Source: Thermoleophilia bacterium (GTDB lineage Bacteria > Actinomycetota > Thermoleophilia > Gaiellales > Gaiellaceae). Taken from it: 32,104 nt of DNA. Below, piece by piece: positions 12,228 through 17,989 of this stretch. A program made the translations under genes and the position numbers. Location of the stretch: assembly GCA_025936995.1 (NCBI GenBank), contig JAICSH010000022.1, positions 1 to 32,104 on the forward strand. Direction: 5' to 3'. Below the pieces are notes generated by a model. The model worked only from the letters and a program-made list of their open reading frames with translations, was not told the DNA's origin and made no database searches. The number at the start of each line of letters is the position of its first letter. The first letter of the stretch is position 1.

Positions 12228-12998
12228 ATGGCCCGGGTGATCGCCTTCGCCAACCAGAAGGGCGGCGTCGCGAAGACGACGACGACGCTCAACCTCGGGG
12301 TCGCGCTCGCCGAGCAGGGAATGCGCGTGCTCGCGGTCGACCTCGACCCGCAGGGCAACCTGACGATGTCGCAGGGATGGAACCCCGACGAGATCGACCG
12401 CTCGATGTTCGACGTCCTCGTGCACCGGCTGCCGATCAGCGAGATCGTCCGGGTCAACGAGATCGACGTCGGCGTGTCGTCGATCGACCTGGCGGGAGCC
12501 GAGCTGGCGCTCGCCTCGATGATCGGACGCGAGCGCGCGCTCGACAAGGCGCTCGCGCCCGTACGGGAGACCTACGACTTCGTCCTCATCGACACGCCGC
12601 CTTCGCTCGGGCTCCTGACGATCAACGCGCTCGTGGCCGCGGACGGCGTGATCGTCCCCGTCCAGTGCGAGTACCTCTCGCTGCGCGGGCTCGTCCAGCT
12701 CGAGAACACGCTGTCGATGATCCGCGAGAACCTCAACCCGAAGGTCGGGATTCAGGGCATCCTGGCGACCATGTTCGACCGTCGGCTCCTTCATTCCCGC
12801 GAGGCGGTCGAGATCCTGAAGGAGAACTTCGGCGACCTCGTGCTCAACACGAAGATCCGCAAGACGATTCGGTACGCGGAAGCTCCGGTGAAAGGGCAGT
12901 CGATCTTGAAATACGACCCGAGCGGCGAGGCCGCCGGGATGTACCGTGACCTGGCGAAGGAGGTGCTCGATGGCGCGTCGGCGCGCCAGCATGCGTGA
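12228..12998 (+). CDS. ParA/Soj-family partition ATPase
   Basis: A 256-residue Walker-type ATPase. The deviant Walker A is KGGVAKTT at 11-18, with signature Lys11 and P-loop Lys16. The A' motif VDLDPQGN is at 37-44, and Walker B VLIDTPPS is at 119-126. The C-terminal stretch [19 protein letters not shown] is typical of chromosomal ParA/Soj, so it should dimerise on ATP and bind DNA non-specifically. An in-frame ATG at 12168 would add 20 residues that do not resemble ParA, so 12228 is chosen. A weak TAGCGG lies seven bases before it. There is no ParB gene beside it; instead its 3' end overlaps the FtsZ gene by 29 bases, with the FtsZ ribosome binding site inside it. That context suggests positioning of FtsZ rather than of plasmid or chromosome DNA. 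Confidence 0.92.
12956..12964 (+). promoter_or_regulatory. Ribosome binding site (GAAGGAGGT) inside parA, deciding the FtsZ start
   Basis: GAAGGAGGT is a near-perfect anti-SD match and ends five bases before ATG 12970. It favours that start over ATG 12946 (which lies before the site) and ATG 12991 (too far), and implies translational coupling of ParA and FtsZ. Confidence 0.75.
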
Positions 12999-14427
12999 GG
13001 GGCCGCTCGCGGAACTCTTCCGCGCGACCGAGGCTGCGCAGAAGCAGTCCGAGCAGCGCGGAGAGACCGAGGAGCAGCCGCCCGAGGACGCCGCGACCGT
13101 GGCGCCCGAAGCGCCGGCCGAGCCGGACGAGCGCACGGTCGAGCACGTCCCGAGCTGGGAGGAGGCGGGCGTCGAGACCCCGACGCCTACCCCGCCGACC
13201 CCTTCGCCCGAGCCGACGCCGGTACCGCCGCTGCCCGACCCACAGCCGCCGGCGCCGACGCCCGAGCCCGATCCACTGCCGCCGCCGGAGATTCGCGCCG
13301 CGGATCTGCCGCCCGTCTCCCGTTACGTCGAGCCGCTGCCGGACTCGCCCGCGCGCCTGCATCGCGCCGGTCCCGACACGGGCGCGTACCTCGCCGTGAT
13401 CAAGGTCGTGGGCGTCGGCGGGGCAGGGCTCAACGCCGTCAACCGGATGATCGACGCCGGCATCAGCCAGGTTGAGTTCATCGCCGTCAACACCGACATC
13501 CAGGCGCTCCGCACGAGCGACGCGCCGGTCAAGATCCACATCGGCCGCGAGCTCACGCAGGGGCTCGGCTCCGGGGCCGACCCGGACGTCGGCCGCCGCG
13601 CTGCCGACGAGGCGTACGACGAGCTGAAGCAGGAGCTGCGCGGCGCGGACATGGTCTTCGTCGCCGCCGGCGAGGGCGGCGGCACGGGCTCCGGCGCGGC
13701 ACCGATCGTCGCGCGCATCTCACGCGAGCTCGGCGCCCTCACGGTCGGGATCGTGACGACCCCATTCCGCTTCGAGGGAACGAAGCGGCGCAGCCAGGCC
13801 GAGCAGGGGGTCGCGGAGCTTCGCAGTGCCTGCGACACGACGATCGTGATTCCGAACGACCGGCTCCTCGAGGTGCTCGAGCGCTCGACGTCGATGCTCG
13901 ACGCCTTCAAGGTCGCCGACGACGTCCTGCGGCAGGGCGTGCAGGGGATCTGCGACCTGATCACGATGCCCGGCCTGATCAACCTGGACTTCGCGGACGT
14001 GCGCACGATCATGTCCGACTCGGACACGGCTCTCATGGGCATCGGCTTTTCCTCCTCGACCGGCGAAGGACGCGCGAGGGAGGCGGCGGAGCGGGCGCTG
14101 CGCTCGCCGCTGATCGACGCGGAGATCACGGGAGCGCGGGGGATCCTCCTCTCGATCGCCGGCGGCGACGACCTCACGCTGATCGAGGTGAACGAGGCCG
14201 CGGAGGTGATCCGCGCCGCCGCGACCGACGATACGAACATCATCTTCGGCGCGACCGTCGACGACCGGCTGACCGGGCAGGTCTGGGTCACCGTCGTCGC
14301 CACAGGCTTCGGCGGCCGCGGCCGCCGGCCGCGCGGCGACCTCGGCGCGCCTTCCACCGAGCAGCAGCGGCGGCCGCCCGGCGAGGGCGGCGACGGTCTC
14401 GACGTCCCGTCCTTCCTCCGTACCTGA
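12970..14427 (+). CDS. ftsZ: FtsZ with a long proline-rich N-terminal extension, coupled to ParA
   Basis: A 485-residue protein. Residues 1-138 are an extension: a short basic N-terminus ([20 protein letters not shown]), an acidic region, then a Pro/Thr/Glu tract (about 70-107). The tubulin-like GTPase core runs from about 140 to 449: [15 protein letters not shown] (147-161), the GTP signature GGGTGSG at 236-242, and the T7 loop NLDFAD at 338-343 with both Asp residues, so GTPase activity should be intact. A short linker of about 27 residues leads to a canonical C-terminal peptide, LDVPSFLRT, which in other FtsZ proteins binds FtsA, SepF or ZipA. It forms the cytokinetic ring. Usual FtsZ is about 380-400 residues with almost no N-terminal extension. 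No dcw-cluster gene is near. Start set by the strong ribosome binding site at 12956-12964. Confidence 0.93.
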
Positions 14428-16609: not shown

Positions 16610-17989
16610 ATGAAGGGTGCGTTGGCGGCCGGTCATCCGCTCACGGCAGAGGCCGGCGCCGAGGTTCTGCGCACGGGCGGGAACGCCGTGGACGCCTGCA
16701 TCGCCGCGGCCGCCGTCTCCTGGGTCTGCGAGAGCCCGCTCACCGGCCCCGGTGGGGGCGGCTTCCTTCTCGTGCACCCGGCAGGCGAGGCCCGGACGCA
16801 CCTGCTCGACTTCTTCGTCGCCGTGCCGCTCCAGCCGGAGCCGGCGTCGGATCTCCTGGAGCTCGTCGTGGACTTCGGCGACTACCAGCAGATCTTCTAC
16901 TCCGGCTCGGCGTCGGTCGCGGTGCCCGGTGTGAGCCTCGGGCTCTGGGAGGCGCACGCCCGCTGGGGGTCGCTGCCGTGGGTGGAGCTGCTCGCGCCTG
17001 CGGCGCGCCTCGCGCGCGACGGTGTCGTCCTCGACGAGCCGCGGGCGTATCTCCACCGGATCCTCGACCCGTTGCTCCGCCACTCGCCGGAGGGGGATGC
17101 GCTCTACGGGCCGGGCCGCGCCCTCGAGGTCGGAGAGCGCTTCGCCGCGCCGGAGCTCGCTGACACGCTGGAGCAGCTTGCCGCGGAGGGCCCGGGCTGT
17201 CTCTACACCGGAGAGCTCGCGCAGCGGATCGCCGCTCATGTCCCGGTCACGCTCGAGGATCTCGCCCGCTACCGGGTGATCGAGCGCGAGCCGCTCGAGG
17301 TGCGCTACCGCGGCGGCTTCCTCCGCACCAACCCGCCGCCGTCGCGCGGCGGGTCGCTGCTCGTCGTCGGGCTCGAGGCACTCGGCGACGCGGACGCGAC
17401 CCCGCTCGCTGTGGTGCGGGCGATGGAGGCGCAGGAAACCGCGAAGAACGCGGCCGGTGCGGGCGGCACGACGCACATCAGCGTCGTCGACGGCGAGGGG
17501 AGCGCAGCTTCGCTGTCGTGCTCGCTCGGCTCCGCCAGCGGCGTCGTCGTCCCCGGCACCGGCCTCGCGCTCAACAACATGCTGGGCGAGACCCACCTCG
17601 CAGGCGAGGAGCGGCCGGGCGAGCGGGTTCTGTCGCTCATGGCGCCGTCGCTGCTGATGGGAGACCGGGGGCCGCGGCTCGTCATCGGCTCGGCGGGAAG
17701 CAGACGGCTGCACGGCGCGATCCTCCAGGTGGTGGCGAACGTCGCCGCCCGCGGGCTCGGGGTGGAGGAGGCGGTCGAGGCGCCGCGCATGCACGTCGAG
17801 GAGGGAGTCGTGCACTGTGAGGATCCGACGGTGGCGGACGAGGTCGAGGCTGCGGGTTATCCGGTCGTCCGCTGGCAGGATCGGAATCTCTTCTTCGGCG
17901 GCGCGTCGGCGGTCGAGATCAGGGAAGACGGCTCGCTCGCTGCGGCGGGAGATCCGCGCCGCGGCGGCGGTTCGGTAGTTGTTCCCTGA
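16610..17989 (+). CDS. ggt: Gamma-glutamyltransferase family protein, cytoplasmic form
   Basis: A 459-residue N-terminal-nucleophile hydrolase. The N-terminal GHPLTAEAGAEVLRTGGNAVDA and the stretch ESPLTGPGGGGFLLV are typical of GGT. The nucleophile motif GGTTHISVVD places the catalytic Thr at 287, where the proenzyme would cleave itself into large and small subunits. The small subunit carries SGVVVPGTGLALNNMLGE and GSAGSRRL (family GSPGG-like). Known family reactions are transfer or hydrolysis of gamma-glutamyl groups, as in glutathione-like peptides; many actinobacteria lack glutathione, so another gamma-glutamyl amide may be the substrate. There is no signal peptide, and it is about 100 residues shorter than exported GGT, so it probably stays in the cytoplasm. 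The stop overlaps the GNAT start by one base. Confidence 0.9.
   Translation: MKGALAAGHPLTAEAGAEVLRTGGNAVDACIAAAAVSWVCESPLTGPGGGGFLLVHPAGEARTHLLDFFVAVPLQPEPASDLLELVVDFGDYQQIFYSGSASVAVPGVSLGLWEAHARWGSLPWVELLAPAARLARDGVVLDEPRAYLHRILDPLLRHSPEGDALYGPGRALEVGERFAAPELADTLEQLAAEGPGCLYTGELAQRIAAHVPVTLEDLARYRVIEREPLEVRYRGGFLRTNPPPSRGGSLLVVGLEALGDADATPLAVVRAMEAQETAKNAAGAGGTTHISVVDGEGSAASLSCSLGSASGVVVPGTGLALNNMLGETHLAGEERPGERVLSLMAPSLLMGDRGPRLVIGSAGSRRLHGAILQVVANVAARGLGVEEAVEAPRMHVEEGVVHCEDPTVADEVEAAGYPVVRWQDRNLFFGGASAVEIREDGSLAAAGDPRRGGGSVVVP

What the first reader, a model, noticed from the sequence alone, without database searches (positions are those of the whole stretch)
12970..13390. FtsZ with its disordered linker and a ParA-partner-like peptide at the N-terminus
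Seen: 138 residues precede the GTPase core, ending in a Pro/Thr/Glu tract, while the usual C-terminal linker is only about 27 residues. The first residues, [20 protein letters not shown], are basic and then hydrophobic with the pattern G-x-L-x-x-L-F. Known: ParB-family and other ParA partners often stimulate the ATPase with a short basic N-terminal peptide of the kind KRGLGKGLxALF. Inference: this FtsZ may itself be the ParA partner, so the ring could be placed by direct ParA gradients, unlike MipZ or PomXYZ, where separate proteins link ParA-type ATPases to FtsZ.
Basis: partly seen in the sequence, partly recalled or inferred. Interest (0 to 1): 0.85.

Follow-up and report, generated by a model that had tools for sequence, protein, structure and literature searches.

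The report
Second FtsZ with ParA-partner-like tag
Bacteria of one class carry a second copy of the division protein FtsZ that starts with a conserved tag of the kind other proteins use to be handled by a ParA positioning protein, and its gene overlaps that of its own ParA, which suggests, but does not yet show, that these cells position FtsZ directly with ParA.

Summary
FtsZ at 12970-14427 has a basic N-terminal peptide, a Pro/Ala/Glu-rich linker without sequence conservation, a normal FtsZ core and a short C-tail. It overlaps parA and has a strong ribosome-binding site. It is a second FtsZ ("FtsZ2"); a canonical FtsZ lies elsewhere in the same genome. The arrangement spans the class: parA lies directly upstream at 79 of 80 fetched places. 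The peptide (K/R-x-S-M-R-E-G-P-L-x-x-L-F-R-x-T) is better conserved across genera than the GTPase core. FtsZ2-linked ParAs form one clade, apart from the ParA of parAB. In other Actinomycetota a related ParA is followed, in overlapping position, by a stand-alone small protein that starts with a related peptide (RASLPGADELFRxT) but has a different C-terminal part (17 of 20 loci). Hence the peptide is most likely a ParA-partner tag, FtsZ2 being cargo and activator at once. Binding, ATPase stimulation and ring placement are inferred, not shown. Seven searches of an open-access library found no description. New variant of a known kind; high interest.

The parts
12228..12998 (+). parA: 256-aa ParA ATPase with NQKGGVAKT Walker A, linked to ftsZ2
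   Evidence: tree: FtsZ2-linked ParAs one clade (100/98), separate from the parB-linked clade (100/100)
12957..12964 (+). Shine-Dalgarno-like AAGGAGGT for ftsZ2, inside parA
   Evidence: Read directly; 5 nt before ATG 12970
12970..14427 (+). ftsZ2: 485-aa second FtsZ, start overlapping parA by 29 nt
   Evidence: TIGR00065 over cut-off; paralogue on contig C57
12970..13029 (+). N-terminal peptide (residues 1-20), proposed ParA-partner tag
   Evidence: AlphaFold2 model has a helix at residues 12-30, moderate confidence
13030..13395 (+). Pro/Ala/Glu-rich N-terminal linker (residues 21-142), predicted disordered
   Evidence: 29-181 aa in 79 rows, identity little above shuffled; pLDDT under 50 over 32-75 and 113-138
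13399..14310 (+). FtsZ GTPase core (residues 144-447), GGGTGSG and NLDFADV intact
14311..14424 (+). Short C-terminal linker and terminal peptide LDVPSFLRT (14398-14424)
   Evidence: near-same ending in the canonical FtsZ ([10 protein letters not shown])

Best explanation
A class-wide two-gene positioning module. FtsZ2 carries at its N-terminus a short peptide that docks on the ATP-bound dimer of its own ParA and stimulates hydrolysis; a flexible linker joins this tag to a normal FtsZ polymerising core. A nucleoid-bound ParA gradient would therefore act directly on FtsZ2 filaments, each filament presenting many tags, and would place or move them relative to the nucleoid, helping to site the division ring together with the canonical FtsZ. 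Shown: the gene pair, its conservation, the peptide, the variable linker, the intact FtsZ core motifs, the second canonical FtsZ, the separate ParA clade, and a related peptide on another protein beside a related ParA. Inferred: binding (I would put about 0.85), ATPase stimulation (about 0.75), positioning of the division ring (about 0.6).
For: Gene order: parA directly upstream at 79 of 80 fetched places (the 80th, G110, ends at its contig edge after parA and peptide). In a DNA pattern scan of named genomes (stopped at 120 stretches, 80 held), 62 of 80 have both genes with the motif, 10 have parA and motif and 4 have FtsZ and motif at the edge of the stretch held, 4 are chance. Starting from FtsZ: of 40 class genomes that I chose, some because they had no peptide hit, 34 have two or more FtsZ matches; of these 31 carry the peptide or its variant, 2 are cut by contig ends and 1 (G077) lacks it (for G198 the hit's place was not listed). 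Variant families keep SGLxxLFRxT or DGLxELFRRT or close to it. Same-position partner: 17 of the 20 best ParA loci outside the class are followed by a small protein starting RASLPGADELFRxT or close to it. Profiles: variant FtsZ2 peptide against that peptide 91.6%, E 8.1e-7, 0 of 60 shuffles as good; main form 73.9%, E 2.8e-5, 0 of 100. ParA tree. MinC_C found in 0 of 99 class genomes and in 6 of 14 controls. Literature (passages seen): ParA/MinD partners act through short basic N-terminal peptides (PMC7993993, PMC10241942, PMC13170346, PMC12204374).
Against: No binding or ATPase data and no complex model. The outside peptide profile does not find FtsZ2 in a six-frame search of 30 class genomes: 23 have some hit at E<=10, none below 0.05, and only two are at FtsZ2 (G061 at E 0.31, G118 at E 2.0); the likeness shows only when the two peptides are compared directly. 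The main form does not resemble ParB. In the tree the FtsZ2-linked ParAs stand with the type beside a zinc-ribbon-like protein (98/93), not with the type whose partner has the related peptide, and the zinc-ribbon partner's stretch shows no significant likeness. G077 has an FtsZ2 core with neither peptide nor an FtsZ2-type parA; it may be a loss or a chimeric assembly.
Confidence: 0.66

Rival explanations
1. The peptide binds ParA, but FtsZ2 is not a division-ring protein: it forms a separate filament that ParA positions (or that positions ParA) for another purpose, such as nucleoid organisation.
For: FtsZ2 is a distinct clade beside a canonical FtsZ. In family f3 the C-terminal P-x-F-[LMVI] motif is missing in 23 of 25 rows while the N-terminal peptide stays.
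Against: In most other rows the C-terminal motif is kept (27 of 28 in f1, 9 of 11 in f8, 6 of 8 in f6); GGGTG[TS]G and T7 loop are found in 77 and 80 of 80 rows; MinC_C was found in 0 of 99 class genomes.
Confidence: 0.2
2. ParA acts on FtsZ2 as an inhibitor gradient, as MipZ does: the peptide lets ParA cap or disassemble FtsZ2 away from midcell.
For: MipZ is a ParA-family inhibitor of Z-ring formation (passage of PMC13170346); P0002 matches Pfam MipZ over its cut-off (51.9 against 20.7 bits), though AAA_31 matches far better (202.4 bits).
Against: The peptide is separated from the core by 29-181 variable residues, which suits a tether rather than capping; a basic N-terminal peptide is the mark of activators (passages of PMC7993993).
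Confidence: 0.15
3. The N-terminal peptide binds something other than ParA (membrane, FtsZ1, a membrane anchor), and the operon with parA is coincidental or regulatory.
For: No direct contact was tested. A helix is predicted.
Against: Hydrophobic moment (0.14-0.19) and mean hydrophobicity (below 0) of the peptide are low (no known membrane helix was run as a control). A related peptide occurs on a non-FtsZ protein beside a related parA. Gene order is kept in the intact loci that I examined except G077.
Confidence: 0.12

Closest known systems
PomX/PomY/PomZ of Myxococcus xanthus
   Same: ParA/MinD ATPase with an activator that uses a short basic N-terminal peptide, and a positive link to FtsZ (passages of PMC7993993, PMC13170346)
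   Different: There separate proteins PomX and PomY link PomZ to FtsZ; here the peptide is on FtsZ itself and I found no third conserved gene next to the pair
ParA with ParB, McdA with McdB, ParF with ParG
   Same: N-terminal peptide, then a part dedicated to cargo (passages of PMC7993993, PMC10241942, PMC12204374)
   Different: Cargo part is DNA-binding or carboxysome-binding, not a polymerising FtsZ; the main form of the peptide is not that of ParB
Orphan ParA PldP/Rv1708 of Actinobacteria
   Same: Actinobacterial ParA outside parAB with a division phenotype (passages of PMC3989709, PMC10482377)
   Different: PMC10482377 reports ScpA and ParB as its binding partners; scpA-linked ParAs, taken here as the Rv1708 type because Rv1708 lies by scpA (recalled), fall with the small-protein-linked ParAs, not inside the FtsZ2 clade
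MipZ of Caulobacter
   Same: ParA-family protein that regulates the Z-ring (passage of PMC13170346)
   Different: Inhibitory and working with ParB; no ParA-partner peptide on FtsZ is known there (recalled)
Dual FtsZ of archaea (FtsZ1/FtsZ2)
   Same: Two FtsZ proteins per cell (listings and abstract starts seen)
   Different: No ParA tag is reported in what I saw; the name FtsZ2 is used here only as a label, and no archaeal FtsZ was in my tree

Membership tests
FtsZ | Tubulin/FtsZ GTPase domain and FtsZ_C domain over curated cut-offs | tested here: met
   (TIGR00065 415.7 against 295.2 bits)
FtsZ | GTP-binding GGGTG[TS]G and T7 loop | tested here: met
   77 and 80 of 80 FtsZ2 rows
FtsZ | C-terminal peptide for anchors | tested here: met
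   LDVPSFLRT in the window; P-x-F-[LMVI] lacking in 23 of 25 rows of family f3
FtsZ | Polymerises and acts in division | not testable with these tools
   Needs biochemistry and imaging
ParA/MinD ATPase-activating partner | Gene next to the ParA gene | tested here: met
   79 of 80 places
ParA/MinD ATPase-activating partner | Short, basic, conserved N-terminal peptide followed by a disordered or cargo part | tested here: met
   4 of the first 9 residues of the window peptide are Arg
ParA/MinD ATPase-activating partner | Peptide shared with a putative partner of a related ParA | tested here: met
   but not detectable in a genome-wide search
ParA/MinD ATPase-activating partner | Binds the ATP-bound dimer and stimulates hydrolysis through a basic residue | not testable with these tools
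   No assay or multimer prediction
ParB | N-terminal peptide RGLGRGLxALI/L | tested here: not met
   Main form 0.25%, 43 of 100 shuffles as good; variant form 4.8%, 0 of 100 shuffles as good
ParB | ParB domains | tested here: not met
   only the two FtsZ domains
ParA of parAB (Soj) | Falls in the parB-linked clade | tested here: not met
   separate clades, 100/98 and 100/100

The most novel reading that the evidence does not exclude
A self-contained two-protein system places the division filament: FtsZ2 is cargo, polymer and ParA activator in one molecule, so a ParA gradient on the nucleoid positions a bacterial tubulin directly with no adaptor, and this takes the place of Min across a class. 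It arose when a ParA-partner tag was joined to a duplicated FtsZ.
Probability: 0.5. Interest if true: 0.93.

Novelty: new variant of a known kind. Interest (0 to 1): 0.85.

Why it matters
How bacteria without Min site their division is open in much of the Actinomycetota. Here a ParA of its own clade and an FtsZ with a ParA-partner-like tag form one operon across a class. If right, it would be the simplest positive division-site system that I know of, and natural evidence that the ParA tag is a portable module, as Pulianmackal et al. (PMC10241942, passage seen) foresee when they speak of a 'luggage tag'. It also points to a protein family, the small proteins starting RASLPGADELFRxT, as the probable partner of a related actinobacterial ParA.

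Tried and rejected
Likeness of the peptide to ParB: rejected for the main form, weak for the variant. Likeness to the protein beside a third ParA type (GKxALYS stretch): 15, 6 and 20 of 100 shuffles as good for the main, variant and outside peptides. Membrane helix: low moment (no positive control). Conservation forced by the parA overlap: rejected. Peptide outside the class: the two weak phylum hits (G399, G445) lie in loci with neither FtsZ nor this ParA. Genomes without a clear peptide hit: (30 genomes, most chosen for lacking one) a full-length FtsZ2-type ParA (65-68% identity) was found in 4 (G244, G016, G086, G022), all with the peptide or a variant, and partial ones in 2 (G074, G102); of the other 24, 19 showed only ParA hits of about 40-46% identity and 5 none, which fits gaps in the assemblies but does not exclude losses. 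Search with the outside peptide in class genomes: no significant hit. Conserved third gene: none found next to the pair; a gamma-glutamyltransferase-like gene (my reading) lies downstream in 32 of the loci, one locus per genus. FtsZ tree (quick method): FtsZ2 one clade (98), two rows with long branches; L201 and L406 dropped before the tree. L073 dropped before the counts. Not searched: MinD, MinE, SepF, FtsA, MapZ.

Full report
What is there. The ORF 12970-14427 (+) encodes a 485-aa FtsZ (Pfam and NCBIfam over cut-off). It starts inside parA (12228-12998), behind AAGGAGGT. Residues 1-20 are the peptide, 21-142 a Pro/Ala/Glu-rich linker, 144-447 the GTPase core, and the tail ends in LDVPSFLRT. 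An AlphaFold2 model (25 rows: the window protein and 24 from DNA-search loci; mean pLDDT 72.9, pTM 0.62) gives a helix at 12-30 with block pLDDT 66-71, a largely disordered linker (32-75 and 113-138 under 50) and a confident core.

It is a second FtsZ. The same genome (1.85 Mb, 70% complete) has a 353-aa FtsZ without N-terminal extension after genes that I read as murB and ftsQ, and elsewhere a ParA followed by a ParB with the usual RRGLGRGLEVLIGG. In a phylum sample of 119 genomes, 10 of 10 class genomes have two FtsZ matches; of 109 others, 102 have one, 5 two, 1 three fragments at one place and 1 none.

Which class. Of the 80 named loci, 43 are ranked as Thermoleophilia (Solirubrobacterales 21, Thermoleophilales 6, Miltoncostaeales 1, no order 15), 22 as Actinomycetota without class, and the rest otherwise, the 4 chance hits among them.

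It is class-wide. Of 149 class genomes, 89 match residues 1-66 at E<=0.01. I fetched 80 of the places; at 79 an FtsZ lies there with parA directly upstream, the other being cut by the contig end. A profile of the peptide hits 278 of 299 class genomes at E<=1. Divergent families keep a variant, for example MEKRSSMKDSGLSSLFRATE and MADRPSMKDGLSELFRRTD, and the two forms match each other (97.4%, E 1.3e-11, 0 of 60 shuffles as good). Starting from FtsZ in 40 genomes that I chose, 34 have two or more FtsZ matches, of which 31 have the peptide or variant, 2 are cut and 1 (G077) lacks it (the place of the G198 hit was not listed). In the scan of named genomes, 80 loci were held (stopped at 120): 62 with both genes, 10 with parA and 4 with FtsZ at the edge of the stretch held, 4 chance.

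Why the peptide matters. In 250 pairs over 41 genera its identity (0.82) exceeds that of the core (0.65), whereas the linker (0.40) is hardly better than shuffled (0.37) and runs from 29 to 181 residues (rows drawn by N-terminal search). Synonymous codon variety shows selection on the protein.

Why ParA. The FtsZ2-linked ParAs form one clade (100/98; 53 rows), as do the parB-linked ones (100/100; 12 rows). Outside the class the best ParA hits (about 50% identity) were examined at 20 loci: at 17 a small protein follows in overlapping position, starts RASLPGADELFRxT or close to it, goes on with a variable stretch and ends in a part that I read as ribbon-helix-helix-like; the two of them that I scanned match no Pfam family over cut-off and no NCBIfam family. 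The other three are followed by ParB, ScpA and a zinc-ribbon-like protein. Profile comparison of the two peptides is significant against shuffles. The two ParA groups share six residues that the parB-linked ParAs lack or nearly lack (R153, I178, H189, E192, K212, V221), of which only V221 is absent from the third, zinc-ribbon-linked type. Against this, the outside profile alone does not single out FtsZ2 genome-wide, and in the tree the FtsZ2 clade stands with the zinc-ribbon-linked type (98/93), whose stretch does not match.

Mechanism. By the known logic of ParA/MinD partners (PMC7993993, PMC10241942, PMC13170346, PMC12204374; passages seen, not whole texts), a basic N-terminal peptide stimulates the ATPase and the rest of the protein is dedicated to cargo. 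Here the cargo would be FtsZ itself. MinC_C was found in 0 of 99 class genomes, which leaves room for another positioning system; other division regulators were not searched. That the division ring is what is positioned is inference.

What is not in print, as far as seen. Searches of the open PMC library list no paper that I recognise as describing a second FtsZ or a ParA-FtsZ pair in this class; only one paper holds both 'Thermoleophilia' and 'FtsZ' (listing seen), on microbes of fruits and vegetables. Papers of subscription journals are mostly not held.

Noticed in passing
L346-L357, L359-L361, L363, L365 (outside the class): 17 small proteins, about 110-190 aa, starting RASLPGADELFRxT or close to it, directly after a ParA; the two scanned have no Pfam match over cut-off and no NCBIfam match; probably the partner of that ParA.
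   Followed up: partly
L362, L367, L369, L371, L373, L375, L377, L380, L382: A third actinobacterial ParA type followed by a small cysteine-containing (zinc-ribbon-like, my reading) protein with a KxALYS or KxALFS-like stretch.
   Followed up: partly
G326, G350, G381, G391, G401: Two FtsZ matches about 1.3-1.6 kb apart on one contig in families f32 and f47, a tandem pair; relation to the ParA arrangement not examined.
   Followed up: no
G077, L211: FtsZ2 core without peptide and without parA upstream; a gene that looks like a phytoene desaturase (my reading) lies there instead; loss or chimeric assembly.
   Followed up: partly
L062 and L063 (G041): One genome with two FtsZ2 loci, one of which groups with family f1; duplication, transfer or contamination.
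   Followed up: no
window 16610-17989 (+): A gamma-glutamyltransferase-like gene (my reading) downstream of ftsZ2; a similar gene lies downstream on the same strand in 32 of the loci compared.
   Followed up: no
FtsZ2 of family f3 (25 rows): The C-terminal P-x-F-[LMVI] motif is missing in 23 of 25 while the N-terminal peptide stays.
   Followed up: no
L217, L263: Two metagenome assemblies titled Bifidobacterium breve carry the class-typical parA-ftsZ2 locus; probably mislabelled records.
   Followed up: no
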